Shown: positions 7,788 through 45,099 of the stretch, one piece after another | Numbering within the stretch: the first letter of the stretch is position 1 | Layout: each line of letters starts with the position of its first letter | NCBI GenBank assembly: GCA_026874595.1 | Contig: CM049317.1 | Coordinates: forward strand, 25,758,401-25,822,400 | Source: Sipunculus nudus | Lineage: Eukaryota > Annelida > Sipuncula > Golfingiida > Sipunculidae | Direction of reading: 5' to 3' | Length of the DNA: 64,000 nucleotides | Program-made: the position numbers and the translations under genes | Notes under the pieces: model-generated | What the model was told of the DNA's origin: nothing | The model's input: only the letters and a program-made list of their open reading frames with translations | Databases searched by the model: none

Positions 7788-7940
7788 ATTCACATATGAA
7801 ATGCGTTACATTGTTATTTTTGTAACAAGTTTGTGATGTCCATCGTCCACCTTTGTTAAGCAGTAGACACTTGTCCCTGGTGGGAACCCTGGATTTCACA
7901 TCCTTCCAGTAGTTATTTAATATATCCTTGTTCCCCGGAT
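7788..7940 (-). CDS. Gene 1 CTLD2 second-half exon
   Basis: A 153-nt phase 1-1 exon between the acceptor ACTATCTAG and the donor GTAAGT. It codes for the C-terminal half of a C-type-lectin-like domain: DKCLLLNKGGRW, then C, then VTHFICE with the final Cys codon split. The usual calcium-site triplets (EPN/QPD and WND) are absent, so calcium-dependent sugar binding is not predicted. It matches 40,300-40,452. Confidence 0.85.
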
Positions 7941-8248
7941 CTAGATAGTATAGAAGCAAAGTTAAAAGAAGCGGTGAAACATAAATCACTCATTACCAAT
8001 TAAACTTTCCTCAGTATGTGCCGCTGTTAACATTTATACCGACAGATGTTAAGATAATGACATCCTTTCGGTTTGCACACAAACCATGTCAAATCATTAA
8101 GGTACTCTTAAATTCATTAAATTATTCATTTTTCACTATTTCAGGCCTTCAGCAAAGAAGTACGCACTTTCCTAAATCGTGTTATTTACTGATTAATCAT
8201 TTAAAGTTCATGCATCATTATTTTAGGAATGCCATCTGCAACAACTAC

Positions 8249-8505
8249 CTATGTGCCATTGCCAGAGAATGTTGGTCAAAGAGAGCCAGAAGGTATCATC
8301 AACACTTCCATTCTGTCTGAGGAAATTTTGTATGCCAATGTACCATTATTCAGAAGAAGCAGCGAACAATAACAATAATTATCTTCATTACATGTCTGTA
8401 ACGCATGCTCCCTAGTTTTCGGTGATATTTTCATAGTCAGACACGTGTTAGAAATCCCGTGTTGGAATTTTACTTCCGAGCAGGGGTATATTTTATCATT
8501 CATAC
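8249..8505 (-). pseudogene. Gene 1 CTLD2 first-half exon with 1-nt deletion
   Basis: The acceptor TTTTGTAG and donor GTAGTT are kept. The exon is 257 nt, whereas gene 2 has 258 nt. The first part reads SNTCLTMKISPKTREHALQT in frame. A single missing base in the AATTATTGTTATTG stretch (about 8,355-8,375) shifts the frame. Downstream, the other frame reads YIGIQNFLRQNGSVDDTFWL and ILWQWHIG, the expected WxWxxG end. With the deletion, translation meets a stop before the exon end. Confidence 0.8.
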
Positions 8506-9194: not shown

Positions 9195-9335
9195 CATATC
9201 TACACACGTAGTGATCATCACACGGTTGAAACTGTATGATGAGTTTTTTGTTCATATTCAAATACACTGCTCCACAATGTCGTTGGTTTGGCCTTTTTGT
9301 TTTCGTTAGATTCAACTTTGACCAAGATATCATTT
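9195..9335 (-). CDS. Gene 1 CTLD1 second-half exon
   Basis: A 141-nt phase 1-1 exon, acceptor AACTCTAG and donor GTAAGTC. It codes MISWSKLNLTKTKRPNQRHC, then GAVYLNM, IQFQPC and YVCRY, the C-terminal half of a CTLD with three framework cysteines. It is intact and similar to 41,638-41,784. Confidence 0.85.
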
Positions 9336-9443
9336 CTAGAGTTAATAATGTAAATTAAAATGGCTTGTAATTTAATAAAGGATTGAAATTCGAAATTATG
9401 AATGTTTTAACTTGATTAATTACAGGTGAACGGTGGAACATAC

Positions 9444-9591
9444 TTGACTTTGCTCTCTGTGCATACACAGTGTAACTGGATTGATCATTTCCACAGAAAC
9501 GTGATAACTTTTGACAACTTTGTTTGCTACATTCCGTACAGTAGCGACCTCCTAGTTTATCTCTGCAGCAACAAATTGGTCCCTTCTTTCC
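9444..9591 (-). CDS. Gene 1 WSC second-half exon
   Basis: A 148-nt exon, phase 0 in and phase 1 out, acceptor TTTTATTAG and donor GTATGT. It codes for the C-terminal half of a WSC-type module: ICCCRDKLGGRYCTECS, SCQKLSRFCG and SYTVYA. This fits the WSC pattern CxC...L...C...C.G....CG....VY. It is intact. Confidence 0.75.
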
Positions 9592-9922
9592 CTAATAAAA
9601 GAAGAACCCGTACGCTTTGGAAAACCGTAATTTGCATATGCTATATTGTATTTCGTCGCCTGTGTGAGAAATGGTGACTTGTTAGTAGTCTTTCATGCTG
9701 GCCTTATGGCAGCGATTTAGTCATAAATTTCTACTTGATAATAGGCCCGTGTGTAAGTAAAATAGCACTTGTAATCCGTAGCATTGAAACTTATTTCTCC
9801 TTATTAAATGACGGGTCAAATGTTTAGATAGTGTATTGGTCGGTCGGGTATGCGGTACATATTCATCATGTTCATGATTACATAAGCATTTCGTAAACAT
9901 TTTTTATGGTGATTGTATCTAC

Positions 9923-10068
9923 CTTGTGCAACAAATAATAGGAGTGAACCTTGCAATACTTTTCGCAAGACTTCAAGTCTTCAACAGTGCAACATTTTTC
10001 GGGACATTCCATTTCATCTGAAGCGTCATGACAGCCTTGAAAATACGCTTTTTGTCCAGACCCGTCAG
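9923..10068 (-). CDS. Gene 1 WSC first-half exon
   Basis: A 146-nt exon, phase 1 in and phase 0 out, acceptor TTTCTTTTAG and donor GTAGAT. It codes GSGQKAYFQGCHDASDEMEC, then LKSCEKYC and YYLLHK, the N-terminal half of a WSC-like module (aromatic-x-GC start, later CxxxC). It is intact and lies between the two halves of CTLD1, as in gene 2. Confidence 0.75.
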
Positions 10069-10430
10069 CTAAAAGAAAGGTAAGAATGATATCCATGTTA
10101 TACTTACATCTGTAGGGAGCATTCTCTTTTTTAAACTGACCATTATATAATACTTTACTTCATAAGTGTCAGATACCATCTTTGTTCAATTGCCCATTGG
10201 TACATAAAATCACCTTCTTCATAAGTATCCGTGTAAAGAAGCCTCAGGTAAAATGTATCATACTGTTATCTGAAATTTTCAATGGTCTTGCATTATACAA
10301 ATACATTATACATTGAGCTAATACATCTTACGATAGCTATTTTAATAATTGAGGCTCATTTTAATTTACGGATGTTTTTCTTGTTATATGTTGCCACTCC
10401 TCTTATCTTTTTATTGTTAACACTCCTCAC

Positions 10431-10584
10431 GCAGAATCCAGGACCAATACAGCGGGACAGTTCTGCCACCGATCCAGGCGCTGTCGTTTAAATGTAGTGG
10501 TTTCAGAAGTTCTATCAGTATTTTATGTGAGTCCTCACTCTAGTCTAGGCCAGTTTGTTCGCCCTTGGTACAGGCAAAAGCTTG
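10431..10584 (-). pseudogene. Gene 1 CTLD1 first-half exon with 44-nt deletion
   Basis: The exon is 154 nt long; its gene 2 counterpart (42,765-42,962) is 198 nt. A single 44-nt block is missing near its middle (breakpoint about 10,550), which removes the TEAGELC helix region and shifts the frame. Downstream of the break the expected frame still reads LKPLHLNDSAWIGGRTVPLY and WSWIL up to the GTGAGG donor. Confidence 0.8.
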
Positions 10585-28446: not shown

Positions 28447-28693
28447 CTGAAAGGTATAGATAGGATAGAGAGAATGGAAGAGAGAATCGGAATACAATAA
28501 AGTGCACCTTGATAATAGTATCTTGATTTCATAATTTATATGATATAAAATACTTAATAGTAATGCTAGAAGTGAATAATATTACATTATTACTTTTAGT
28601 TTAATTATTATTCAATTTGTAACTTGCTATTGGTGTTATCAATATAAACAATTATTTAATAATTTAAATAGTTTTTATTTAAGTAAAATTTAC

Positions 28694-28966
28694 CTATATG
28701 CCACCGCCAGAGAGTGTTTGTTGTTGAAAGCCAGAAGGCCTTTTTAAAGCTGGCCTTTTCTCTGAGATAATTTTGTAGTTGCTGGAACCAATGTTCGGAG
28801 GAAACGTCGAATAATCGGCCTTTTCTTGACGAACCATTATGATATATTCAATACAGGTTTGTAAAGCTTTTCCCAACTTGCGCTGATCGTTTCAGAGCTA
28901 GACATGCATAAGATGTTCTAACGTGAACTTTAACTTCCATGTAGGAGCAAAGCATGTTATGGTCAT
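28694..28966 (-). pseudogene. Pseudogene B CTLD2 first-half relic
   Basis: The acceptor GTTTCAG and donor GTAAAT persist. The frame begins LCSYMEVKVHVRTSYACLA, hits a stop, and in another frame continues FQQLQNYLREKASFKKAFWL and TLWRWHIG, the same WxWxxG end as the intact exons. Confidence 0.75.
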
Positions 28967-29581
28967 CTGAAACGACATTACTTGCAAGTTAATATGTGAT
29001 TGTACATGTTCATGAGCTTTGGCGTCGAAACTGTAAATAATATATACGTTTTAAGTTAAACAACAGAGAAAAGAGGCCCTTGTTTAATTACTGATATCGC
29101 TGCTCTTGACGCCAATGCTTTATGGGGTTATTTCCAGACATAGGAAATCTTTTCTGAGTATCCTCGAACGGAACTAAACGATTCCATTATTTCTAAGCAA
29201 CCTTTAAATATTATTCAATTGTAGATATTGTTTGTTTGTAACTCTTAGAAGTAATGACATGATATTGGCATGTTGCCATTTGTTTCCTTTGCAAAAAATT
29301 ATGTTAAATAAGGCAGGGAGTACCGAATATGTACAAGCAATACCGAGATCTTTGATTCCAGGCGACAAATATGTGATAATTATAGACGCCGGACCGTACA
29401 GATCTTGTGATTTGAGTCGCACCACATCAGGCAAAATGGCCAGCTGGCAGATTCTTTAAGGAGTGAATTGGAGAAATTTTCCACTGAGAGAGACTATAAA
29501 AATCAATGATAAGTAAATGGAAATTATTATGTCAAAAACCATACTCCGTAAAGTTGACACAGGTAAAACTGGGTCACTTAC

Positions 29582-29740
29582 CTTATCTACATACGTACTC
29601 TGCAACCTCATCTCACGGACGAAACTGGCAGAATCGGTTCGTTTTCTTGTTTGGTTTTGTCTGGCTCATATACAGCGATGCAGAATGTGGTTGGTTAGAC
29701 CATCCTGTTGTGTTGAGTTCGTACACCCAAGAGATGGCTT
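29582..29740 (-). pseudogene. Pseudogene B CTLD1 second-half relic
   Basis: Reads EAISWVYELNTTGWSNQPHS, then FCQFRP, then a stop where the intact genes have the Cys of PC. YVCR near the end and a GTAAGTG donor remain. Confidence 0.75.
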
Positions 29741-29889
29741 CTACAAGGATCAGTTTAGATATTAATAGAGAAAAATGACAACAGGGGCTTGCAGTTGTCA
29801 ACTGAATGTGATTATTTTTTTAGCCATTTACACGCACATATATGTATCATTACCTCTTAAAAAACTGCGTAAAATGAAAATTAGACCGC

Positions 29890-30040
29890 CTTGACTTTGT
29901 TCTTTGTCAATACAAAGCGTAACTTAACCGATTCCTTCCACAATAACGTGATAACCTGCGGCCAAATTTTGCTCTACATCCTGAAGAATATGTACGACCC
30001 ACATGATCTCTCTGCAGTATCAAATTCGTCCCCTCTCACC
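29890..30040 (-). pseudogene. Pseudogene B WSC second-half relic
   Basis: The acceptor TTTTCAG is kept. One frame ends FGRRLSRYCGRNRLSYALY and a stop, matching LSRFCGNDQSSYAVYA of gene 2. An early stop and frameshift precede it. Confidence 0.7.
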
Positions 30041-30474
30041 CTGAAAATGAGAAGTGTATCGTTAAAGGAGATGTATTCTTCAATAAGATAGCCATCACTT
30101 CTGCTGTTTCTTTGTATGGAGCCTTCTTTTTTCTGTTATATTAATGAAACACGGTGTGTCATAATACACCAGTTTAAAAAGCACAAGAAAATGGTGAACG
30201 GTAAAAGAGTGGGTTGAAAGTATTTTTTATTCTTTATTGTTTCAGGCCTTTTCACATGACTCGTTATTTGGACTGTTTTTGATCAAACGAACATGTGCGT
30301 TTTGTAAATTCCCAGCAACATGGCTAGTTTTAAATATAGTTTTGGAAACGTTTTGAATTTTATAATGCCATATGCACTTTATTTCATGCTTCTAATCCAT
30401 TACATCAGCTAAATCACAGAACACCTTAAAGCATGACTTTACTCTACCAGTTAATTGCATTTACCTTGAATAAT

Positions 30475-30598
30475 AAGGATCTGCAAAACGTTTCACATGA
30501 TTTTAAATGTTGAATTTGTTGACAGCGACCTAAGGCCCCAGATTTGTCAGCAGTTGCATAACAGCCTTGAAAGTACATTTTCTGTTCGGAACCATCAG
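30475..30598 (-). pseudogene. Pseudogene B WSC first-half relic
   Basis: Well-preserved frame GSEQKMYFQGCYATADKSG, LKSCETFC, donor GTAAAT. The acceptor dinucleotide is AT instead of AG, so normal splicing of this exon is not expected. Confidence 0.75.
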
Positions 30599-30649
30599 AT
30601 GAAAGAAAAGTAAAAATTTTAACAGTGTTTAAAGCGGTAGAGGGAATTT

Positions 30650-33185
30650 AATTATTCACATGCAACTAGTGTTGCAGGGTGTACCGATTATTGTTTACCT
30701 TTACACGGGGCAAACAGTTTATCTAATGTGTTTATCCTTTGACGTATTGTAACGATTAGTTTTAATAGAGCAAAAAAAAAAAAAAAAAAATACTCGAGTT
30801 TGATTTATATGACCTGAAGCTGCACCTTTAAATCATTTCAAATAATGTGCTGGTATGGATGAGCCTGCTGGGCTTACCATTTGTTCTGTTACGACAACCC
30901 AGAGGAGTCTGAGCGGTTACAAACAGTGGGAAGAAAAGGTATATTGATGACGTGATTGCAACTGTCATTCTACCCATATTACAACTCAGTAGTTGTTTCT
31001 GAAGAAATATATACGGTTATGTTACTTAATATATGAAAAAAAGGATCGAGTGCACTTTCAAATATACTTATAATACTTATATATATTTCAGGAAAAGCAT
31101 TATTTTGCATAATCAGTTCATCTTCGGCTTTATTAGGCCCAGTATTGTTTAATATTGGCCACACGATGGCCAGGGTATATTGCATCAATGTCTATTGTAA
31201 AGTGATACCTTGAGATGGTTTGAAGTCACCAAAATGATTTAATTCAGGATGGTTCATAGTTCAGTCAACAAACAAATATAAGTGAGAACATATCGCCTTG
31301 AAAACCAATTTAAAAACGCAAAAGCAGAGAGAGTGTATCAGATGCTGCATCCATGAGACATATTGATTAGAGCACGAGAGAAAACCTGGTGCTAAGGTAT
31401 TGTTTAGTAAATTACCCTTTTCCACGATGCCAATATCAGTATCCTCAACCCGGAAAAGCTCTCAGTATTCGAGACTTAGTTGCAACTCGTTTCTCTCAAC
31501 AAACACCAATCCGCACGTTAGTTGTTAAGCTACTACGACACTAGCGGATTAACAAAGGTTATATGTATAAATCATAATGAATGATATGTAGATTGATATA
31601 ATATTTTTGATTGTATCTGCACAGAATCTTCTGGATGCCCGTACATCTTTGCCATAAGGGATCATTAGGTTATCTATACGGATATTCAGTATAACCATCT
31701 GTAGGTTTTATGTTAAGTCCTTACAATGAGCCTTTGAGTTTTACATTTTTTTCTTGCGTTTGCTGTCAATTATATAAGAAATTATTGTTTCCTGTTAAAG
31801 AGATACTTCATTTTGCACATTAGGGTAGGTTGTGAGATTTCTAGACCAAGAGCTAGGAAAATAAAACGATTCTGTATCTTGCTAAAAATTATTACAACGG
31901 AACACAAGTACACCTTTTCAAATATGTTCCACATGTACCACAATCATACCCCGTGCAAATACGGAAAGAGTTGTAATATCAGTAATAAAATTTGCACGAT
32001 ACTCTGAACTCTGAACTCTGAAAGGTGTGATTTTTCAACCATGGTCCTATGATAATATAAAATGTTTGCCTGTTTCCCTGTATTTAAAAGCAAGTGTTTG
32101 AAAATGCACGTTTTTAATCGTCTCATTTAAAAAAGTTATTTTGAAATCAATCAGAACCCATTCAAATATGTAGTATTACAAGAGAGAATACTCCGACAAG
32201 GCTCAAAAACCAATTCAGAATCTATGTGTTACAGTTCAACAGACACAAAGACTATGATGGAAAGACACGAGTAAAAAAAGTAACCACCGTTACCAATAAT
32301 AATAATAATAATAAAATAATATTAATAATAAATAGAAAGGTTAAATCAAGTTAAGAATGCTACCACTAATTAACATTTGGGATGCAAGAACAATGGCTCT
32401 AACGTATTAAGGACGGGTAAATAGTAGCTGTGGTGCTTTTTTGGGATTTAGATGAAATAGACGTGGAGATGTGGTTGTAAATTGACTTATGATTTAATCA
32501 CCTTCCTTGTACAATGAATCAAAGGCCAGGTGTGTTGACAAGGAAATGTGTCTGTGCTGATGTGTGTGGCGCTTCCCCTTAGGTTTGCTACTCTGGGGGT
32601 ACCCGGTAACTCAATTCTTGTCACAGCGTACCTAACATAAAAAAATATATCTGATGGTGACCTTGAAGAAAGTCATCTGAATACGGACCAAAAAAATAGC
32701 TAAGGAAATCGTGCATAATTGCGCATGACATTCCGTACTCATTTTGATCAAAACCCCGGGTTTTTATTTCTACATGCGCAAAATAAAATGTGTTTTTGAG
32801 GGCAAATATGGGGCAGCAGTCCCGTTAATCTTGCACCGCGTACTACTGATAAGATTACTGATAACATAACATACAGGACGTTAGACACATCTAACGGCAC
32901 TGGGCGTAATACATTTTCGTGACCTGATCAACTGTTTGTATTAATCATAACCAAGGGATTTTTTTTTCCTACCAAAAGTACATTTTGACAGATTCATGTT
33001 ACGTTCAATAATATTTTTTCTTTTATTTTTAATTAGTCAATTATGGGCCTTAAAAGGTCTTATCAGGTGAAAGCGAATGTACAATTAAAAGTGACAGACA
33101 GCGACTGGGCAGACACATATGGCCTCAGCTACGGCAAGAACACTTGGATGAGGTCTCTGAACAAGACAGGCGTCAATTAAAGGCA
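30650..33185. other. Non-coding stretch, right copy of duplicated block
   Basis: Matches about 1,800-3,715. No exon is seen. A poly-A run lies at 30,771-30,790 and (AAT)n at about 32,297-32,332. Confidence 0.65.
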
Positions 33186-33419: not shown

Positions 33420-34014
33420 TTAAGTGTTATATATCTCATTGTCTATGAGGAATGTATCTGTTTCGACCTGGTTTTCCTCTCCTTTACAGCATCCTTTCTG
33501 TGGCACTGCATACATATGTTGTTCTCCTTCTTCATGGTTGGTACAGTGATCTGATATTTTATCACGGGACTTGCTTATCTTTACAATGCTTACGAATTCT
33601 CTCACTGGAGGAATGATGTGACAAATTCCTTCTTTATCGATTTGATCTTGTTCTTTAGTGTAAGTTATACTCAGCTGTGCGTCATCTTCTCCAGTGTTTG
33701 AATTTGACCTGTCACGTAATTTGCTGCTGATCTTGAACTTCGTGTTAGTCTCTACTGCTGGATCTATAGTCTTACCAGATTCGTAGATCACATTTTCAAC
33801 TAGGTCATCACTTACTTCAGGCATCCAATTTATGTTCAGATCACCAGGAATTCCACTATGACTTGTGGCAGCGAAGGACGTCACAAACTCTTTTCTTTTA
33901 CCTGGACACAAAGCTATGTCATCAATATCTACATATTCTCCTAGCTGCTCGTCCGTAGTAGTAACATCATATTGTTTAGTCTGTTCTGCTGATAGTACAT
34001 GCAACAGCTTCCAT
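33420..34014 (-). CDS. Gene 2 tail exon (cytoplasmic)
   Basis: 595-nt last exon after the acceptor ATTCGATTCCAG. Tyrosine sites: KQYDVT, GEYVDID, NVIYESG, ITYTKE, MYAVP and the terminal NEIYNT. YAVP is a YxxP site of the kind bound by Crk-type SH2 domains; YVDI resembles acidic Src-family SH2 sites. None is a strict ITIM. The extreme C-terminus is nearly identical to gene 1. Confidence 0.85.
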
Positions 34015-34355: not shown

Positions 34356-35083
34356 TTCTTTGCAGAAAATCATACAAAATAGTATTATTATTGTTTTTAT
34401 TATTATTATTATTATTATAAAAGTTCTCATACAATATATTATTATTTTTTTTGCCCGAATATGTGTTTGACCTCAATCATATAAAATAAGTATCATCTCT
34501 ATAAGATGATTTCACCTGATGATGAACGTTATCAGAGTGACAATTCCCAGCAAAACCAATATTCCTCCAACCGTTCCTCCTACCACTGCATTCTTGAAAC
34601 TTGTTGAATACCTTGTCTGACCTAGAGAAATATTTGTGAAGATATGGTGGCTTATTGGTATGCTTATTGTTAAATTATTTACCAAAATGTTTAGAAGTTT
34701 ACAAAATGTTGAATGTATTAACACTTACCTTTTCAGATTAATGTTAGATTTCGGTCATATTATGAAGCTGTTTATATTTATATTACAGTCAATATAAAAA
34801 ATTGAAAGAAACCTTTCTGAAAATAAGTATAGATTAATACTGACGTCAGAAAATTTAACAAAAGGAGAGAAATATAAATGTTGGTCTACAGTTAGCCTTT
34901 AAGCATCAAACGGATACTAGAGCGTGAACGTTCTCTTGATAAGCTCACAGCCTTCAGTGAAGACACTGGAAAAATCCACTCGTTTACTTTTGCAATCCTT
35001 ATGCCAACAATCAAATATAAAATATTGCTGTAATGTTCTTTCATATGTCAATTTCAAAGTGTTCCTAGCGGAAATAATTTCAT

Positions 35084-35150
<67 letters not shown>

Positions 35151-36861
35151 CCATATGATGCATTTATAACATTAGTCTTTTATGCTGCTGCATAAGCTGA
35201 ACGAATGTGTCATAGATGATAGAAATCGTTAGCAGATTAGTTGAAAACAAAAAGTTATATGGGAATTATAAATAGTGTGAATAAATGTATATATCCCCCA
35301 TCATTATTTGTGATGGCAGGACGATAGGCAAAATGATATAGCTAAAGAACAATGTACCCTCAAAATGGCTACTAAATTCAGAAGCTGTGGTCATAGCATT
35401 GTCGTCTTTGTCCCCACCTCTTTCGACAAGAAAAGCATCCCATATTAAGGCAAACCTAGCTATATATCTGTACGTCAGTTACATTTTATCTAAATGTTTG
35501 TCCTCTGCCTACTTGTTCTACCTGTTGTATCCTAAAATCTAACCATAACATTATCGTATTATATGAATTTCAAATTAGCCATACATAACATCGTAACCAT
35601 TATAATGTAGACGAACTACCATCGCACAGAGATGGAGATATGCAAATTTATATTCATGTATTACAATGATGGCTCAAAACACCAGAAAATAAAATAAAAA
35701 ATAGTCTATAAGCAGCTTACTGGTAATGCTGTTGTCGACTACAGTAGGTGAAGACTCTGTATTTGTTTGCATTGGCTGTTATATACAAATGGCATGACAT
35801 GCAAGAATAACTTACAGCTGTCTCCCTTTCTCTCTTATGTCTCGTTCTTCCCCCCTGTCTTTTATTTGAATATACACATAGCAAAATTACTGCACGTCAG
35901 TAACATTTTATTTGAATGTTTGTCCTTTGGCATCTTGCACTAATTGTTGCTTATTAAACTCTAACCAGAACATTGTATTATATAAGTTTATAATAAGCCA
36001 TTCATAACATTGTAATATTATAACTAAAACGAACTACAATCGCATAGAGAAGGGCATATGCAAATACATATTCATATATCACTATGGTGGCCCAAAAAGC
36101 CAGGAAAGAAAAATACAAGCTAGTCTATGAGCACTTTACCGGTAATCTTGTTGTCGACTGCAGCAGATGAAGACTGTTCGTGTTTGCTTGCATCGGCTGT
36201 TATATATAAAAAAAATTACATGAAAGAATAAATTTCAGCTCTCTTTCTCCTTCTCTCCTTTGTCTCGTTCTTTCTCTCTCCCTCTCCCTCTGTCTCTTAT
36301 ATATGATTAACTTATATTAACTTCATCTGCTGACATTTTCTCTTTATATTAGGTGCAACATTGTATAGAAATTTAAAATTTTTATCCTAAAATCTAATCG
36401 GCCAGAGAGGGGTATATTCAAATATATATATTCATATATATCAATGCTAGCCGAAAAAAAGAAAGGAAAAATACAAAAAAATAATGAACAGCTCCCTGCT
36501 AATATTGTTGTCCATTGAAGGAGATGTAGAACTTTCGTATTTGCTTGCATTGGCTGATATATACAAAAAGCATCAAATGAAATAATATTTCACAGCTCTC
36601 TCCCTCTCTGTCTCTCCTATGTCTCGTTCTTTCTCTCTCCCTCTCCCCCTGTCTCTTATATATTACTTACTTACTTACTTATTTTTACTTACTCTACCTA
36701 CTTCTTCTGTTTTTATTAGGTGCAACATTGCATAGAAATTTAAAATGTTTATCCTAAAATCTAACCATAATATTTTTGTATTATATAAATTTCAAATAAG
36801 TCATAAATAAAAGTGTCATATATAAACTTAGACAAACTACAATCGCCTAGAGAGGGGTATA

Positions 36862-36907
<46 letters not shown>

Positions 36908-38219
36908 TTTCTTACTATAGTGGCTCAAATCACAAGAAAAAAAAAAACGCAGGTCACCGGTAATGCTGTTGTTGACTCCAGGAGTTTGAGAATGTTCTTG
37001 TTTGCTTGCATCGGCTGATATATACAAAAAGCATCACATGAAATAATAAATTACAGCTCTCTCTCCTACTTTCCTATGTCTCGTTCTTTCTCTTTCCCTC
37101 TGTCTCTTATACATGACTTACTTATATTTACTTTCTCTACTTAAATTTTCTGTTTATATTAGGAGCAAAATTGCATAGAAATTTAAAATGTTTCACCATA
37201 AAATATAACCATAACATTACTGTATTATATAAATTTCAAATAAGCCATTTATAAAATCGTTATATATAAACTTAGACGAACTACAATCGCTTAGAGAGGG
37301 GCATGCTCAACTCTATACAGTCGAACCTCTCATAGTGGGTACCTCTGTAAAGTGGACATTTTTGGGCAGTCCCCTTTTTTTTTCTCTTTATTATGTTTAG
37401 CTAATATGGGCACCTCTATATTCTGTAAAGTAGGCACCTTTCCCAAGCTAATGTTGGCACTTCCTGGATTTTCCCAGTTGAAGTATCATCCTATTTAAAC
37501 TTTTCTGAGTTTTATTATTGTGAATTTGTAATTATTAGCAATCAGAATAACTGTTAATTATTAAATATTTATATTCCAACTGTTAATGATAATGATCATA
37601 CAGATGGGCAAAGGTCAGAGGTGTATTACTGTCTAATTGCATAATCATTAAAATAGTCTTCTTGCCTCAAGGCTAAGCATGGGATGTTAGAGCGATGGTT
37701 TACAGCCAGCAATGAAAACACCACTCAGTAGCAATTCATATTTGACTGATAAGTATACCTTGATCTGACAGTCACTGGACTTCTTATGTCAGCGAAGCAA
37801 ACAAACTGCTATAGTTAATACCATGAGTGGCCGCCCCTGCTCATTCACTTAGTTACTAAATTGGTACGCTGAGATGAAGGGACAGGTAAAGGTTCCCCCT
37901 GGCCAAGAGTAATGCTTACTCATTAGCCGTTGCACTTATTATCAACACCAAACACTGATCATTCGCATGCATTTTGTGTCATATTAACTCTTACTGTTCA
38001 CTTAAAATGTCAACCCCCAACCTGAAATGTACTAGTAAAGGTTGGAACAGACCTAAACGTGTACCAGTTCAAAGATTCTGAGAGCGGCTTGTCTAAGAGG
38101 AAGTTTTATAGAACAGTATGGTATTTCCAAGGATGACTTGGGTAACTTATTAACATATTAGCAGATTTAGAAGATACGTTCAATACTTGTAGGTTATGTC
38201 CATCGATATATGTTATAAA

Positions 38220-38258
<39 letters not shown>

Positions 38259-39091
38259 TGTATATGTGTTTTTTACTTGTTAACCTATATGTTTAAAAGC
38301 AGGAAGAAAATGCATTAATCAATTTAAAACGTTTTAAAACTATGAATATTTTTCAAAGCAGGTGGCATCACTGAAAGTGGCAGCTATTACCTCTATATTG
38401 TTGGCACCTCTATAAAGTGGACAGTTTGGCCCAGTCCGAAGGGTGCCCACATTTTTGAGGTTCGACTGTATATTCATATATAACGATTTTGACCAAAAAA
38501 GCCAGAAAAAAATACAAAATAGGTTGTGAAGAAAAAGTATATGAACAGCTCACCGCTAATGTTGTTGTCGATTGGAGGAGATGTAGAACTTTTGTATATG
38601 CTGGCATCGGCTGTTATATACACATAGCATCACATGAAATAATATTTTACAGCTCTCTCTTTCCTTCTCTCCTTTTTCTCGTTTTTTCTCTCTCCCTCTA
38701 TCTCTAATATGTTACTTACTTACTTATATTTACTTACTCTTCTTACTCTTTCTGTTTTTACTAGATGCAACTTTGCATAAAAAATTTAAATGTTTCATCT
38801 TAACATCTAACCATAATATTATTGTTCTATAGAAATTTCAAATAAGTCATAAATATATAATCATCATATATTAACTTAGACGAACTACGATCGCCAAGAG
38901 AGGGGCATATTCAAATATTTATATTGATATATTGCATTGTTGGCCTAGAAAGCCAGAGAGGAAAAAATTCAAAATAGTCTGTGAACAGCTCACCGGTAAT
39001 GTTGTTGTCAATTAAAGGAGATGTAGAACTTTCGTATTTACTTGCATCAGCTGTTATATACAAATAGCATCACATGAATGAATACTTTTCA

Positions 39092-39145
<54 letters not shown>

Positions 39146-42100
39146 AAGATGCATGGTAAGGTGATTATTTATGGGGGGTTTGTATTTGTTATTTAATACC
39201 TTCAACTGTTAAAGAGCTTTACTCCAGGAGCAGCAAATACACACGTATAGCATATTCTTTACAGGATGGAGTTTTAATGAATAAAAGGAACAGCTCATGT
39301 TGACTAAGCTTGACAAATTACCTTTAATGAATAAATGAATCAACTCTTTTATGTACATGACGGCATAACATTTTTCACAATGCGCTTAATGAGTTATTGC
39401 GTGATATGATTAGATCGTACAAATTGATATTAAATCATTACATAATATTTTGTAAGGTATTACTGCCTCGGAGGTGATTAAATTGTTCTAGAGATAATTG
39501 AGCATTTATGTCATGGTTAACATGTTAAGAACAATGCTTTTAATTAGATGTCATTTATGAGTATGTGTAAAATCTCTGTGATGTTTATCATTGCTTCATA
39601 ATTCTTGAATAGTCAGTTAAGCTTATAGGGGATGTTTGCATTACAAATATCTTAATTTTCTGTCAAACAAATTGAACCAAGATTATCCAGATATAAACAA
39701 AAAAACTTACGATTTTCCAACGGTGCTGTATTCCTACTGTTGCTTGTATCTGTTGATATATAAACATATCATCTTACAAATATTGAAAAAAAACACAACA
39801 TTTTGTCAAAGCATCATCTTTAGCTATTATATTTAATATTATGTCCACCTACATGTGCTTATTTTCACAGATGTATTATGCCTTATAGCTCTCAGCTGCT
39901 CTGATTGATACACATTTTACTCATTTATTGCTATCTAAGTATTAATCAAACTTGGCAAGACCTTCCTGTAAAATACATTTATTTGCAGTAAACTGCCAAG
40001 CTGTCAGCACAGAAAGGACAAGGAAAAATAAGCTAATTGTTCACTATAACTCACCCGTTAACGTGTTATCGTTTCCAGGAGTTACACTGCTCGATGTGTT
40101 GTTTGCATCTGCAAGTGTACAGGCATGATATCGTATTAGTAGAAACATTTTGCTATGACAATTAAGTACTCACACTGACTTGTATTCATTAGACTTAAAG
40201 AAAATGATCGCTTCAAATCCGTTATATATTTATATATTGTCTACAAGGCCTAGTATAAGTGTGATTACACCTGGCTACCTGTGTTTCAATATAACTTACA
40301 TTCACATATGAAATGCGTTACATTGTTATTTTTGTGACAATTTTGTGATGTCCATCGCCCGTCTTTGTTAAGCAAAAGACACTTGTCTTTTGTGGGAATC
40401 CTGGATTTCACATCCGTCCAGTAGTTATTTAATATATCCTTGTTCCCTTGACCTGGAAGCAAATTTAAAAGAAAGGAAGCGATGAAACATAAATTACGCA
40501 CTACCAATTAAACTTTCATCAGTATGTGCGGAAGTTAATATTTATACCAAAGATTATAAGATAATGGAAACTGTTCGGTTTGCACACGCATCATGTGAAT
40601 TCATTGATGTACTCTCAGATCCATTTAATGGTTCCCTATTCAAAATATCAGGCCTTTGGCAAGTAAGTGCACACTTTCGTTAATCATGTCCCTGATTTAT
40701 GATTTTCATTTTATGCATTATTATTTTAGAAATGCAATTTGCAACATCTACCCATATGCCATTGCCAGAGAATGTTGGTCGCAGAGAGCCAGTAGGCCTG
40801 ATTCACGCTGCTCTTCTGTCTGAGAAATGTTTGTAGGCCAATGTACCATTGTTCAGATGAAGCAGCAAACAATAACCCGTTGTTATCATCATTACATGTC
40901 TGTAACGCATGGTCCCAAAGTTTTGGGGCCCTTTTTAAAGTCAGGCAGGTATTAGATGTCTGGTGTTGAAATTGTACTTCCCAGAAGGAACAGCTTTTGT
41001 TTTGCTTACCTATAAAATACATTTTGTGTAAATTACGTTAAATATGTAACAGAAGTGTATTCGGGTTTATCATACAAAGGAATTACAAAAACCTCGTCGA
41101 ACCTCTGAACTGTGGACTAAATAAGTAATGAGGATTCTTTGCAAACTGTTTACAGATAATTGTCTGTTGCTATTTGCCGCCTTGGACTGGCGGTTCAGTA
41201 TTATTTTCGACACTTTTGGATGAGAAAATGTAGACTTTCTGGCATCAAGAGGTCGTGAAATCAGAAGCTATGGCAATATGTCCCATAACATAATTTATCA
41301 CCTTCAAGGAACACATTGTGTCATTTACAGAATAAGTTGACCGCAAGTGGTTGTCTGCCAATTTTGGGTCGTAAACACCCTTTGATCCATGTACCATGAA
41401 TCTGCAGGCCGTCCATTTCTTGTAGCTTTTTTCGGTTTAAGACACAGGGAAGTCATCAATTGGTTCGAGAGTAATTATACGATAAGAGTTACACCTATAT
41501 AATATTTAAAGGGAACCCTGCTGATTTGTTACAGAGACAATACGAAAGCTAGTTTTATTAGATATATAGGCATAGAGTAGTACCAAGTCAAAAACCATGC
41601 TGAATACAGCTCATGATCAGCAGAATGGTTGACTTACTATAGCTACACACGTATTTTATGTCATCCTCGCACGGACGAAACTGTATGAAGAGTTTTTGTT
41701 TCATGTTCATGTACACTGCTCCACAATGTCGTTGGTTGGGCCAGTTTGTTTTCTGAAGATCCCATTTTGTCCAAGATATCATTCCTTCAAAAAATAATGT
41801 AAATAAGTATGGCCTAAAATCACATAAAGGCTTGAAATTCAAAATTATGTTAAATTATTTAACTTGATTAATAAAAAGTAAACATGGAACCTACTAGATT
41901 TTGCGCTTTGTGCATACACAGCGTAACTCGATTGATCATTTCCACAGAAGCGTGATAACCCTTGGCAACTTTGTTTGCTACATTCCGTGGAGTAGCGAAC
42001 TCCTAGTTCTCTTCTGCAGCAACACATTATTTCATTCTCTGCCTAATATTAGAGAAAACACCTGTGCTTTGGAAAGTCGTAAAATATCTATATGGCATTC

Positions 42101-43430
42101 TAATACAATGTCTACTCGACACTAGGCCTGCATGTAAGCCAATATCCATGGTAACCGTACCACTGAATCTAAAAGCACCCGATTAAACGTAAATGACGGG
42201 TAATATGAACTGTCCTTAAATATTGATCTGTCGGTTATGCAGTATATATTCAACATATTCTTGTTTACGTATGCATAACTAAAACAATTTTTATGTATTT
42301 TGTATCTACCTTGTGCAAGGAATAATATAAATGAGCCTTGCAAAAGTTTTCGCAAGATTTAACATCTTTAACATGGCGACAGCCTTCGGGGCATTCCGCC
42401 TTATCCGAAGCGCAATAACAGCCTTGAAAGAACATTTTCTGTCCAGACCCGTTAGCTGGAAGAAAAGCCAGAAAGGTAACAATGGTAAACTAACATTTTT
42501 AAGGAGCACTCTTAATTTCGCAATTCTTTAACTGGTTATTATATAATATTTCACTTAAGATACCATCTTAGTTCAGTTGCACAGTTTATAAAAATCAGGA
42601 TAAAACAGCGTCAGGTCAAAAACTTTCATTATGTAGTCTGAAGGGTTTTAAAAATTGTCATTGGTCTTATGTTATAGAAATACAAAGTTAATTATCAAAT
42701 AACAAAGACAGACTTATATTAATTTACGGATATGTTTTTTTTGTTATATGTTAACACTACTCACGAAGAATCCAGGACCAGTACCGAGGAACAGTCCTGC
42801 CACCGATCCAGGCCTTGTCCTTTTTCTCCAGTGGTTTCAGGAGTTCTAAAAGTAGTTTATGTGAGTCCTTATCCTGGTCTAGGGCTAAACGCCCACCTTC
42901 CTTAATGCAAAGCTCCCCGGCTTCTGTCCAGTTTAGTCGCCCTTGGTACAGGCAAAAGCTTGCTGTGGATAAAGAAAATTAGTATTAATACAGTTAGACA
43001 TGTGTCACATAGATATTCAATGGTATATATACATATATATGTATATATAGTGTGCCGTTCAATCGATTAAACCGATGATTGGTCGTTTTCTTTCAAAATC
43101 GATTTAATCGATAACATTTTACATAATCCAATAAAAAAGATTATGTATGCTCATGCAAACAATCTAATTCTGTCTGAGATATACAAACTCAAAGTAACGA
43201 AAATCATTAAAATGGAACCATTGCATCCAACAATCATCAACGATTTTATTAGTCTCATTATGAATACCGCTGCACATAACAGACTATTAACTGGGGTCAA
43301 TATTTTAGGTTTAAGTATACAGCAGATTTCTAGGTAATAATGAAAGTACATAAAATCATCAATTGATAATCGATCATCTGCCGTTTTTATTTTTCAATTA
43401 TCGATTATGATTTCAAAACCAATTCTACCA

Positions 43431-43484
<54 letters not shown>

Positions 43485-45099
43485 TTTGTAATATGTGGTA
43501 TTTTATTTTACTTTTATATAGCTATGTCATATTTCCTACGCTTATTTTTATTTTATTCCTTTGCATACCAGCGGCCTTGCAAGGAACATCTTATGGGTTC
43601 GATGGCCAGGGCGGGAGCGTCAGCTCCCGGACCGGAAAGAACACTGGGAAATCGAACCTCCCTCCCTCACAGAGGGAGCAGGGTTAAGTATCCGGCCAGC
43701 GGCACACTCTCGTCCGTTTAAACATACCGATTTTGGCATTCGACAGGCGACTTGAATAGAATCTACTTTTTGTTATGGCGGGCTGTACCAGGGAGGGTCG
43801 TAGTTTGGACAAGCGAACCTTCGAATTGACGTCATCATGTGGATGACGTCGACCTTCATGCGGTTTCGCAGAATTTTCAAGTAGAGCGGTGCGTACTGCT
43901 CTGTACCAATGCCCACTCAGGCGTTATGGTTATAATATCACTAAATATCCAATCAGAATATAAATACACTGTTTCTGGATTATGGACTTTATACATTGTC
44001 ATTCCATCATATATAACATCTCTCTTAACGTTTCCACTTACCACCTGAAGGAGAAGCCTCTGCGCTTCGAAAGCTCGTGTGTTAATATATAAGTTAATCT
44101 ACCTAAAAGGAGTCACTCTTTATCGTAACTTTTATGTGTTTGTTTACTTATGTACGCTACCTACACCCGTAACAAAACAAATATTTGCAACCTTGATGCC
44201 CTAATATCACAATCATTTACGGAACATTAGGTACTTCTACAAATATCAAAACGTACAATAGACCTCTCTTTGACCTACCACAGCTACAAAATCATAACCA
44301 CTTTATATCTAAACGGAAAATGTAAATAAAACCTAAGATCTTTGCGGAACAAGACTCAATGTGACAAGACTCAACATGAATCAACATGGCAGGATGCAGT
44401 TAGTATTCAAATTAAAATGTAAAGGGAAGTATCTATTGCTATATGAGAGTTGTGTACTTCATAACGAGAATTAAAGTATAATCAACTTAAAAAAAACACG
44501 AGCAAGAATAAAGATTTGCCTTAGAATTTGTCACTTTAGATTTTAAAAATGTATTACTAGCACGACCTGTGACCCAATATGTTATACAAAGTTCTTAGTG
44601 CTCTTTTTTTATTATGAACAATATTTTGTTATAAAATATTACATCTTAATCACAGAGTATTAGACATCTTAGTATCTTTAAATGTATTAGGCATATACTT
44701 GTATGTATAACATATCTTCATACTGATTAATACGATTTATATGACTTCATTCAATGTCTTTATCTTTTCAATATTATATATTGTTATCTTACAAGGCAGT
44801 TAATGTGCATTACATTTTTTCCTACCAGATTTCCCGTGAACTGGAGATTGTAAACTGGACTTGTCTGCACATGCACAGAAGTTCGGGAATAACGAAGAAA
44901 GAATATGAAAGGCACTGAAACTGTTCGTATTCAAGCACCCACTACAATCATATATATTTAGACCACAAATGACCACCGTCTAAGGCTTACCATTTGTACC
45001 AGTCTGACATCTGAAATGATCGTGAGCAGCGACCATCAGTGAAATTGGCAGGAATACAAATGAAGTGATTATTGCTCTCGCCAAACCCATATTGTAGTC
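33420..45099 (-). CDS. Gene 2: intact CTLD-WSC-CTLD receptor with tyrosine-motif tail
   Basis: Fifteen coding exons join to 2,172 nt, exactly 724 codons including stop. Sense order: 44,991-45,099 (ATG at 45,090), 42,765-42,962, 42,310-42,455, 41,895-42,042, 41,638-41,784, 40,752-41,009, 40,300-40,452, stalk 40,055-40,108, 39,711-39,749, 38,994-39,050, 38,554-38,610, 36,958-37,014, 36,140-36,196, then 34,516-34,621 and 33,420-34,014. All introns fit GT-AG and phases agree throughout. The predicted product is a type I membrane protein: signal peptide, CTLD1 split by a WSC-like module, CTLD2, a stalk of about 107 residues, one helix and a tail of about 197 residues with phosphotyrosine-type motifs. 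Extracellular ligand binding with SH2-mediated signalling is the likely role, by analogy with lectin-like immune receptors. Calcium-site residues of sugar-binding CTLDs are missing in both CTLDs. A fold-back transposon lies just upstream of the start codon. Confidence 0.85.
34516..34621 (-). CDS. Gene 2 transmembrane exon
   Basis: 106 nt, acceptor TTTCTCTAG and donor GTGAAA, phase 1 in and phase 2 out. Codes TSFKNAVVGGTVGGILVLLG, IVTLITFII and the first two bases of the Arg codon completed in the tail exon. Confidence 0.88.
35083..35149. repeat. (AT)n microsatellite
   Basis: AT run with one ACATAT interruption, in the intron between the last stalk exon and the transmembrane exon. Confidence 0.95.
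35721..35775 (-). pseudogene. Stalk mini-exon copy with 2-nt deletion
   Basis: Acceptor TATAACAG and donor GTAAGC are kept, but the exon is 55 nt where its siblings have 57 nt, so including it would shift the frame. It is the member of the stalk array nearest the membrane. Confidence 0.75.
36140..36196 (-). CDS. Gene 2 stalk mini-exon 6
   Basis: 57 nt, phase 1-1, acceptor TATAACAG and donor GTAAAG. Codes (A)DASKHEQSSSAAVDNKITG. Ser-rich. Confidence 0.75.
36497..36553 (-). pseudogene. Stalk mini-exon copy with destroyed donor
   Basis: Open in frame (NASKYESSTSPSMDNNIS) with a good acceptor, but the donor is GG instead of GT (ATTAGCA followed by GGGAGC). It is expected to be skipped, and the frame then stays intact because flanking exons are phase 1-1. 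Confidence 0.75.
36862..36904. repeat. (AT)n microsatellite
   Basis: AT run in a stalk intron. The sibling introns hold only short ATATAT pieces at the matching place. Confidence 0.95.
36958..37014 (-). CDS. Gene 2 stalk mini-exon 5
   Basis: 57 nt, phase 1-1. Codes (A)DASKQEHSQTPGVNNSITG with an N-glycosylation sequon (NNS). The donor GTGACC is weaker than in its siblings (GTGAGC). Confidence 0.7.
37318..38468. mobile_element. Tigger/pogo-like non-autonomous DNA transposon (MITE)
   Basis: 1,151 bp with terminal inverted repeats CAGTCGAACCTC at both ends, flanked by TA on each side (37,316-37,317 and 38,469-38,470), the target duplication expected for pogo/Tigger-type elements. Inner sub-terminal sequences (TGTAAAGTGGACA and its mirror) also match. 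No transposase frame is present. It sits in the intron between stalk mini-exons 4 and 5, splitting an intron otherwise like its siblings. An (AC)n(AT)n tract lies inside at 38,221-38,262. Confidence 0.85.
38554..38610 (-). CDS. Gene 2 stalk mini-exon 4
   Basis: 57 nt, phase 1-1, acceptor TATAACAG and donor GTGAGC. Codes (A)DASIYKSSTSPPIDNNISG with a sequon (NIS). Confidence 0.8.
38994..39050 (-). CDS. Gene 2 stalk mini-exon 3
   Basis: 57 nt, phase 1-1, acceptor TATAACAG and donor GTGAGC. Codes DASKYESSTSPLIDNNITG with a sequon (NIT). Confidence 0.8.
39092..39148. repeat. (CT)n(AT)n microsatellite
   Basis: A CT run followed by an AT run in the intron between stalk mini-exons 2 and 3. The upstream sides of the stalk introns (in gene sense) all carry pyrimidine-rich TCTCTCTC stretches on the plus strand. 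Confidence 0.9.
39711..39749 (-). CDS. Gene 2 stalk mini-exon 2
   Basis: 39 nt, phase 1-1, acceptor ATATCAACAG and donor GTAAGT. Codes (D)TSNSRNTAPLEN, a shorter and divergent member of the stalk series. Confidence 0.7.
40055..40108 (-). CDS. Gene 2 stalk mini-exon 1
   Basis: 54 nt, phase 1-1, acceptor CACTTGCAG and donor GTGAGT. Codes (D)ANNTSSSVTPGNDNTLTG, with N-glycosylation sequons at NNT and NTS. Membrane-distal end of the stalk. Confidence 0.75.
40300..40452 (-). CDS. Gene 2 CTLD2 second-half exon
   Basis: 153 nt, phase 1-1, acceptor TTGCTTCCAG and donor GTAAGT. Codes GNKDILNNYWTDVKSR, KCLLLNKDGRW, NCHKNNNVTHFICE. Typical C-terminal CTLD framework (C...W...C...FICE). The positions of EPN and WND carry IPT and WTS, so calcium-dependent sugar binding is unlikely. 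Confidence 0.88.
40752..41009 (-). CDS. Gene 2 CTLD2 first-half exon
   Basis: 258 nt, phase 1-1, acceptor GTATTTTATAG and donor GTAGAT. Codes SCSFWEVQFQHQTSNTCLTL, HALQTCNDDNN, WYIGLQTFLRQKS, YWLSATNILWQWHMG: first CTLD Cys, helix region, WYIG (the WIGL position) and WxWxxG. Joined to 40,300-40,452 it forms an uninterrupted CTLD. Confidence 0.88.
41638..41784 (-). CDS. Gene 2 CTLD1 second-half exon
   Basis: 147 nt, phase 1-1, acceptor TTTTTTGAAG and donor GTAAGTC. Codes MISWTKWDLQKTNWPNQRHC, GAVYMNMKQKL, FRPC and YVCSY. This is the part of a CTLD that normally follows directly after WxWxxG. Here it is separated from it by the two WSC exons. Confidence 0.85.
41895..42042 (-). CDS. Gene 2 WSC second-half exon
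   Basis: 148 nt, phase 0 in and phase 1 out, acceptor TCTAATATTAG and donor GTAGGT. Codes IMCCCRRELGVRYSTECS, SCQGLSRFCGNDQSSYAVYA, which fits the WSC C-terminal pattern with C.C, C...C.G, FCG and a VY ending. The module has more cysteines than the eight usual for WSC. Confidence 0.8.
42310..42455 (-). CDS. Gene 2 WSC first-half exon
   Basis: 146 nt, phase 1 in and phase 0 out, acceptor TTTTCTTCCAG and donor GTAGAT. Codes NGSGQKMFFQGCYCASDKAE, GCRHVKDVKSCENFC, YYSLHK. The FFQGCY start and the VKSCENFC helix are the N-terminal WSC signatures. A Pro codon and an NGS glycosylation sequon arise at the junction with the CTLD1 exon. Confidence 0.8.
42765..42962 (-). CDS. Gene 2 CTLD1 first-half exon
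   Basis: 198 nt, phase 1-1, acceptor TTTATCCACAG and donor GTGAGT. Codes SFCLYQGRLNWTEAGELC, GGRLALDQDKDSHKLLLE, AWIGGRTVPRYWSWIL. Textbook first half of a CTLD: Cys, TEAGELC helix, GGRLA strand, WIGG and WSW. Confidence 0.9.
43030..44990. other. First intron of gene 2: repeats, no exon seen
   Basis: Contains AATCGATT-rich blocks at 43,045-43,115 and 43,350-43,410, an (AT)n tract at 43,433-43,482, a more GC-rich block at 43,560-43,870 whose minus strand has a B-box-like GAGGTTCGATTTCC and could be a decayed tRNA-derived SINE, and from about 44,330 sequence shared with 10,640-11,350 of gene 1. Confidence 0.6.
43433..43482. repeat. (AT)n microsatellite
   Basis: AT run of about 50 bases in the first intron of gene 2. 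Confidence 0.95.
44991..45099 (-). CDS. Gene 2 signal-peptide exon
   Basis: An acceptor (CTTTCTTTAG, AG at 45,100-45,101) is followed by 9 nt and the ATG at 45,090. Codes MGLARAIITSFVFLPISL, a hydrophobic leader ending near MVAA, then HDHFRCQTGTN, and leaves in phase 1 through GTAAGCC. The acceptor implies a further 5' untranslated exon upstream, which I cannot locate. The fold-back element begins 20 bp upstream of the ATG. Confidence 0.85.

What the first reader, a model, noticed from the sequence alone, without database searches (positions are those of the whole stretch)
41638..42962. WSC domain nested inside a C-type-lectin-like domain at an ancestral intron
In gene 2 (and gene 1, 9,195-10,584) the two halves of CTLD1 are separated by two exons coding a WSC-type module. 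CTLD1 stops at WSWIL and resumes at ISWTKW...WPNQRHC, so the module lands in the long-loop region. CTLD2 of the same protein has one phase-1 intron at the same WxWxxG position and no insert. The inserted pair enters in phase 1, changes to phase 0 and leaves in phase 1, so it is a symmetric cassette that could be added without disturbing the lectin frame. A cysteine-rich, possibly glycan-binding module placed in the ligand loop of another ligand-binding fold would be an unusual receptor design. I know of no described CTLD with a nested WSC.
Basis: partly seen in the sequence, partly recalled or inferred. Interest (0 to 1): 0.92.

Follow-up and report, generated by a model that had tools for sequence, protein, structure and literature searches.

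The report
WSC module nested inside C-type lectin receptors
In what appears to be a marine peanut worm, a large family of cell-surface receptor genes carries one small binding module spliced into the middle of another, an arrangement that my searches did not find described and that could show how new recognition receptors are built.

Summary
Scaffold lengths point to Sipunculus nudus (Sipuncula, Annelida), not a mollusc. Gene 2 reads as one open 723-aa model: signal peptide, CTLD1 interrupted by a two-exon cysteine-rich module, CTLD2, Ser/Thr stalk from mini-exons, transmembrane exon, tail with six tyrosines. Gene 1 is broken in two exons.

Pfam misses WSC in 12 close modules, gene 2's included. 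A distant relative's module in the same place scores WSC 1.9e-6, just above cut-off; family profile against WSC profile gives 95.5%, E 1.4e-8, above 200 of 200 column shuffles. With the module removed, CTLD1 matches Lectin_C at 2.5e-12; with it in place, nothing matches.

Of 92 CTLD1 first-half exons, 48 have a module exon within 6 kb downstream on the same strand, 0 upstream or on the other strand; loci lie on seven chromosomes. Most likely: one old insertion in a membrane receptor family that then expanded, with the WSC head displayed on the lectin loop. No transcript or fold could be tested.

The parts
44991..45090 (-). Gene 2 E1: start codon and likely signal peptide (by eye)
42765..42962 (-). 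Gene 2 E2: CTLD1 first half, ends YWSWIL, phase 1 in and out
   Evidence: Lectin_C 2.5e-12 when joined to E5
42310..42455 (-). Gene 2 E3: WSC-type module, first half (phase 1 in, 0 out)
   Evidence: WSC by relatives and profile
41895..42042 (-). Gene 2 E4: WSC-type module, second half (phase 0 in, 1 out)
   Evidence: WSC by relatives and profile
41638..41784 (-). Gene 2 E5: CTLD1 second half
40752..41009 (-). Gene 2 E6: CTLD2 first half
   Evidence: no Lectin_C match in Pfam; profile match of CTLD1 and CTLD2 family alignments 72%, E 3.4e-5
40300..40452 (-). Gene 2 E7: CTLD2 second half
36140..40108 (-). Gene 2 stalk: six in-frame mini-exons (40108-40055, 39749-39711, 39050-38994, 38610-38554, 37014-36958, 36196-36140), phase 1-1, Ser/Thr-rich
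34516..34621 (-). Gene 2 transmembrane exon
33420..34014 (-). Gene 2 cytoplasmic tail exon with six tyrosines, to the stop codon
9195..10584 (-). Gene 1 E2-E5, same nested layout; E2 broken, E3-E5 open
7788..8505 (-). Gene 1 E6-E7 (CTLD2); E6 off frame
28692..30596 (-). Third, broken paralog: remains of E3, E4, E5, E6 with stops

Best explanation
Gene 2 encodes a type I membrane receptor whose N-terminal C-type-lectin-like domain carries a WSC-type domain inserted into its long-loop region. The insert is a two-exon symmetric (1-1) cassette that entered the phase-1 intron at the W-x-W position, most likely once and before the family expanded, and has been inherited with its lectin host since. 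Inferred mechanism: the CTLD core is the scaffold, the WSC module is held out from the loop face as the recognition head, a Ser/Thr-rich stalk lifts the head from the membrane, and the tyrosines of the tail pass the signal on. Tandem duplication with birth and death of copies gives a repertoire, as expected of recognition or immune receptors. Shown here by sequence: gene order, phases, open frame, homology of CTLD1 and (through relatives) of the module, co-inheritance, constraint on the coding frame, a TM exon. Inferred: inclusion in mRNA, the fold, ligand, signalling, immune role.
For: Open 723-aa model with AG/GT at every internal border. CTLD1 without the module: Lectin_C 2.5e-12; first 383 residues with it: no family. 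Same test, with approximate junctions, on L042 and L041: 1.2e-10, 5e-10, and on L030 and L020: 1.9e-8, 4.4e-10. Module: WSC 1.9e-6 (28.5 bits, cut-off 27.8) in L040, 4.1e-5 in L036, 0.0047 in L042; first module exons of L054 and L056 0.0031 and 0.0084; profile comparison 90.1%, E 1.6e-6 with 12 modules and 95.5%, E 1.4e-8 with 15, 0 of 200 shuffles as high in either. Position: 48 of 92 downstream same strand, 0 elsewhere. Co-inheritance: module and CTLD1 first-half distances correlate 0.78 over 14 loci, 0 of 5000 permutations as high. Constraint: median dN/dS 0.33 for the module, 26 of 78 pairs usable. WSC cysteine order plus, in 15 of 15 modules, CCC and at least one more cysteine before it; the six ordinary WSC rows have neither (by eye). 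Tail exon also found at five other loci.
Against: Pfam sees no WSC in 12 close modules, gene 2's included; the profile match of ten close modules alone is weak (13.9%; score 22.1, best shuffle 20.4). Two of the three rows added between the 90% and the 95% profile (L036, L040) had already matched WSC. L041 and L057 modules miss WSC. L040, the best WSC scorer, has a stop in its CTLD1 first half. In L036, L040 and L043 the last two WSC cysteines are gone. A profile of cluster copies only found the second module exon in 2 of 8 distant loci, one weakly (L042 1.8e-8, L036 0.045); the others were seen by eye. CTLD2 is not recognised by Pfam. One recent pair shows dN/dS 1.0 in the module, on five differences. 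WSC structures lack an obvious ligand cavity (PMC9024836, passages). No transcript, protein or fold; many copies are broken.
Confidence: 0.62

Rival explanations
1. The E3-E4 pair is an alternative cassette: cells make both a plain CTLD1 receptor (E2 joined to E5, in frame) and a WSC-carrying form, and the choice changes ligand specificity. This modifies rather than excludes the main reading.
For: Phases 1-0-1 make skipping frame-neutral; the skipped product is a good Lectin_C match.
Against: No transcript evidence for skipping. The module is kept in many copies and its frame is constrained.
Confidence: 0.25
2. The module is a family-specific cysteine-rich PAN/Apple-type domain, not a true WSC domain.
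For: No Pfam WSC match in 12 close modules, gene 2's included. The WSC fold is itself PAN/Apple-like (PMC9024836, passages). Three distant modules lack the last cysteine pair.
Against: Where Pfam gave a related family for distant modules it was WSC (L040, L036, L042, L054, L056), with no PAN match listed. The eight-cysteine order fits WSC, including the two bonds that the Wsc1 paper calls specific to WSC-like domains.
Confidence: 0.1
3. E2 and E5 do not fold together; E2 is a degenerate half-domain, and the protein is a string of independent pieces.
For: The first 383 residues with the module in place give no Lectin_C match.
Against: Joined E2+E5 matches nearly the whole Lectin_C profile in gene 2 and four relatives, and solved CTLDs such as echicetin (4.1e-5) and tetranectin (2.2e-4) over most of its length.
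Confidence: 0.05
4. Relict array: the cluster is decaying and the layout has no present function.
For: Gene 1 and the third paralog are broken; stops or frame changes in L025, L029, L032.
Against: Gene 2 is open over 723 codons; median dN/dS 0.33-0.45 in the four blocks measured over 13 loci.
Confidence: 0.04

Closest known systems
C-type-lectin-like domain receptors (PF00059)
   Same: CTLD1 matches the Lectin_C profile nearly end to end once the module is taken out.
   Different: A second domain sits inside it; calcium-site motifs EPN/QPD and WND are absent in gene 2 (motifs recalled, by eye).
Yeast Wsc1 sensor (PF01822; 7PZ2)
   Same: WSC-type head, Ser/Thr-rich region, one TM segment, cytoplasmic tail (PMC9024836, passages).
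   Different: Here the module is nested in a CTLD and has extra cysteines; a second CTLD follows.
Kremen 1 (kringle, WSC, CUB; 5FWS)
   Same: Animal type I membrane protein with a WSC domain.
   Different: Kringle, WSC and CUB in a triangular arrangement (PMC5014086, start of abstract in the listing); no CTLD (recalled).
Polycystin-1 / sea urchin REJ family
   Different: A large multi-TM protein; no nesting stated in the passages seen.
Bivalve CTLD-containing proteins with WSC
   Same: WSC is named among extra domains of bivalve CTLD proteins (PMC10140915, passages).
   Different: Domain order not stated in the passages; the word 'nested' does not occur in that main text.

Membership tests
C-type-lectin-like domain (PF00059), CTLD1 | Profile match over the whole domain above the curated cut-off | tested here: met
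   47.9 bits against 22.6, positions 3-106 of 107, with the module removed
C-type-lectin-like domain (PF00059), CTLD2 | Profile match above the curated cut-off | tested here: not met
   No Lectin_C match up to E 10; only a profile-profile match of family alignments to CTLD1, 72%, E 3.4e-5
Calcium-dependent C-type lectin | EPN or QPD and WND motifs | tested here: not met
   Gene 2 CTLD1 reads WPN and no WND, CTLD2 has neither (by eye; motifs recalled)
WSC domain (PF01822), gene 2's module itself | Profile match above the curated cut-off | tested here: not met
   No match up to E 10
WSC domain (PF01822), the nested module as a family | Profile match above the curated cut-off in some members | tested here: met
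   L040 28.5 bits against 27.8; L036 24.1 and L042 17.6 are below it, L041 none; L057 none
WSC domain (PF01822), the nested module as a family | Eight cysteines in WSC order, as in Wsc1 | tested here: met
   By eye on the alignments against the Wsc1 bonds; lost in part in L019, L036, L040, L043
WSC domain (PF01822) | PAN/Apple-like fold wrapped by the long L5 loop | not tested
Type I membrane receptor | One TM segment and a cytoplasmic tail in the same frame | tested here: met
   (hydropathy)
Type I membrane receptor | Signal peptide | tested here: inconclusive
   Hydrophobic N-terminus read by eye; no predictor used
Immune recognition receptor | Expression in immune cells and binding to non-self | not testable with these tools
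   No expression or binding data

The most novel reading that the evidence does not exclude
A sipunculan receptor superfamily of about fifty or more loci (broken ones counted) on seven chromosomes uses a nested WSC head, displayed from the loop of a non-calcium CTLD and stabilised by a fifth disulfide, as the variable recognition surface of an innate immune or self/non-self system: a way of building a receptor by inserting one recognition fold in the ligand loop of another.
Probability: 0.35. Interest if true: 0.8.

Novelty: new variant of a known kind. Interest (0 to 1): 0.62.

Why it matters
Both domains are known, and both occur together in other proteins, but nesting of one in the loop of the other, kept in a large expanded receptor family, did not appear in the listings of the library searches made (25 of 564 papers listed; 30 of 305; 12 of 58; 3 of 3). 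It would be a clear case of how a symmetric intron cassette can create a nested domain without breaking its host, with dozens of natural variants in one genome to compare. It also shows how annotation can miss such genes: the first 383 residues of gene 2, which hold three domains, give no Pfam family, so similar receptors may be overlooked in other animals.

Tried and rejected
Mollusc origin was rejected on scaffold lengths. Of five scaffolds that can be compared with the published table, three are equal: C8 80,869,746 (N50), C2 98,497,835 (N10), C12 78,550,287 (N70); two differ slightly: C3 97,945,123 against 97,953,984 (N20), C6 88,867,441 against 88,873,922 (N40); the total is 1,426,538,692 against 1,426,776,655 (PMC10212961, outline with abstract and passages). 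A trimmed release of the same assembly would explain this (inference). A hemerythrin search meant to test the animal gave only three matches at E 0.001, on the small contigs C118 and C128, and did not help.

Haplotype duplication of the cluster was considered: the main aligned pieces of four pairs are 94.4, 93.7, 98.5 and 94.4% identical, with gene 1's flanks at 82.6-87.5%, so a segmental duplication is likelier for most, not proven. A 55-nt mini-exon at 35775-35721 breaks the frame and was left out of the model. A mini-exon near 36552 lacks a GT donor (by eye). The CTLD1 second half is a weak probe: 22 genome matches, 20 of them at C12:25.3-26.8 Mb; distant second halves were read by eye. PDB searches with the modules of gene 2 and L042 gave nothing and one chance match at E 0.4. 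The mussel transcriptome paper PMC4581086 (passages) names a WSC protein and C-type lectins separately and adds nothing.

Counts to qualify. The 92 CTLD1 exons are the rows down to E 0.0095; 57 weaker rows of its 149 were left out, and one search scored 150 of 165 candidates. The 88 module rows pool (both listed to E 10), overlapping rows merged by hand. L018-L043 were fetched because the module search had hit them, so their layout is not an independent sample. Of the 44 CTLD1 exons without a module, 10 were fetched in stretches of 2.6-3.2 kb; a family profile that did not contain them found a first module exon in 5 of 10 (L054, L056, L057, L058, L059), two more may hold a worn one (L051, L055, by eye), three show none. 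The second-exon hits in L036 and L040-L043 are by construction, since those rows were in the profile.

Full report
What is there. On the minus strand, gene 2 runs from 45,090 to 33,420. Fifteen exons join into one frame of 723 codons, with AG and GT at every internal intron border. In order: likely signal peptide; CTLD1 first half (E2); two exons of a cysteine-rich module (E3, E4); CTLD1 second half (E5); CTLD2 in two exons (E6, E7); six short Ser/Thr-rich exons; a transmembrane exon; a tail exon with six tyrosines. No transcript was available, so the model rests on sequence, conservation and splice signals.

CTLD1 is one lectin domain cut in two. Joined E2+E5 matches Lectin_C at 2.5e-12 over positions 3-106 of 107, while the first 383 residues with the module in place match no Pfam family up to E 10. 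The same holds, with junctions placed approximately, for two cluster copies, L030 and L020 (1.9e-8, 4.4e-10), and two distant relatives, L042 and L041 (1.2e-10, 5e-10). The best solved relatives of the joined domain are echicetin, EMS16 and tetranectin. CTLD2 is weaker: Pfam lists no Lectin_C for it, and only its family alignment matches that of CTLD1 (72%, E 3.4e-5).

Is the module a WSC domain? But the same exon pair, in the same place in more distant members of the family, scores WSC: L040 1.9e-6 (28.5 bits, cut-off 27.8), L036 4.1e-5, L042 0.0047, L041 no WSC; first module exons of L054 and L056 0.0031 and 0.0084, L057 nothing. Twelve family modules against six WSC rows (four from this genome, Kremen 1, Wsc1) gave 90.1%, E 1.6e-6. 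With three more rows (L036, L040, L057, the first two already known to match WSC) it rose to 95.5%, E 1.4e-8, score 47.6; the best of 200 column shuffles reached 23.2 and the reversed profile 14.4. Ten close modules alone gave 13.9%, score 22.1, best shuffle 20.4. The cysteines fall in the order of Wsc1, whose eight cysteines form four bonds (PMC9024836, passages). All 15 modules compared have CCC and at least one further cysteine before the helix pair; the six ordinary WSC rows have neither (by eye). I predict a fifth disulfide between them (inference). In L036, L040 and L043 the two cysteines that would form the in-loop bond of Wsc1 are both absent (by eye), as expected if they pair.

How widespread. 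Gene 2's module found 61 matches in the genome, most in C12:25.3-26.8 Mb. Of 18 cluster loci fetched from these (L018-L035), 15 show E2-E3-E4-E5 in order; L027 lacks E2, L031 lacks E5, L035 is a fragment. Of these 15, L025, L029 and L032 show stops or frame changes. Eight distant loci on C12, C9, C7, C1 and C13 (L036-L043), also picked from module matches, show the CTLD1 first half and then the first module exon in 8 of 8 with a profile of cluster copies only; the same profile set found the second module exon in 2 of 8, and CCC-type second exons were seen by eye in five. Over 92 CTLD1 first-half exons, 48 have a module exon within 6 kb downstream on the same strand (39 within 1.5 kb), against 0 upstream and 0 on the opposite strand. 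The chromosomes are C12, C13, C7, C9 and C1, and C2 and C8 by family profile (L056, L054).

History. Module and CTLD1 first-half distances correlate (Spearman 0.78, 14 loci, 0 of 5000 permutations), as expected if one insertion was inherited with its host. Splice consensus alone recovers the same phases at nearly all module borders. Median dN/dS is 0.33 for the module (26 of 78 pairs usable), 0.34 (34 of 66) and 0.45 (24 of 66) for the CTLD1 halves and 0.36 (19 of 55) for CTLD2, over 13 loci that include gene 2's near twin L018 but not gene 2; one close pair reaches 1.0 in the module on five differences. Many distances are near saturation, so these are rough. A six-gene block at 25.34-25.45 Mb seems to recur at 25.73-25.83 Mb (order read), with 93.7-98.5% identity in the main pieces of four compared pairs. 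The tail exon is found at gene 2 and five other loci, 36-96% identical, one of them with stops.

Gene 1 has the layout but is broken in E2 and E6, though its tail exon is open. The W-x-W intron is shared by CTLD1, CTLD2 and the family; among 151 listed Lectin_C exon matches it is uncommon (capped list), so 'ancestral' should be limited to the family. The animal is most likely S. nudus: three of five comparable scaffold lengths are identical to the published ones and two differ by under 0.01%.

How it may work. The sequence shows a membrane receptor. The rest is inference: CTLD as scaffold, WSC as head, stalk as spacer, tyrosines as signal outlet. WSC domains occur in a beta-glucan-binding lectin and in Kremen complexes, though the two solved WSC folds compared there lack an obvious ligand cavity (PMC9024836, passages). 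The calcium motifs of sugar-binding CTLDs are absent in gene 2 (motifs recalled), which shifts the likely binding work to the module or to protein contacts. Expansion and pseudogenes fit a recognition repertoire but do not prove immunity.

What is known. [quoted passage not shown] The listings of four library searches showed no nested WSC in a CTLD, and a search for S. nudus with lectin (15 of 19 listed) showed no study of these genes in titles or abstract starts. The library lacks most subscription journals, only the best-ranked papers were listed, and no other animal genome could be searched here, so neither absence from print nor restriction to sipunculans is shown.

Noticed in passing
window 40108-35721: The stalk of gene 2 is built from repeated mini-exons, four of the six used being 57 nt, all in phase 1-1 (DASKYESSTSP...NNIT type), with worn copies among them (one of 55 nt off frame, one near 36552 without a GT donor): stalk length seems to change by mini-exon duplication and loss.
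   Followed up: partly
G000, many chromosomes: About 57 of the 151 listed Lectin_C matches lie in similar open frames of roughly 330-440 aa with near-equal scores, scattered over most chromosomes, which looks like a CTLD carried by a mobile element.
   Followed up: no
L020, L021, L022 (C12:25.635-25.668 Mb): Three copies of the nested gene at steps of about 12.7 kb; L020 and L021 are 99.6% identical over 5.9 kb, a very recent tandem triplication.
   Followed up: partly
window 28692-30978: A third paralog with stops in its E4 and E5; its counterpart L027 has stops at the same places, so decay probably predates the block duplication.
   Followed up: partly
window 1326-1139: Isolated CTLD1 first-half remnant in two pieces.
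   Followed up: no
L044-L046 (contigs C118, C128): The only hemerythrin-family matches at E 0.001 lie on two small contigs, which may be bacterial; none appeared on the chromosomes, odd for a sipunculan, whose oxygen carrier is hemerythrin (recalled), unless introns hide it.
   Followed up: no
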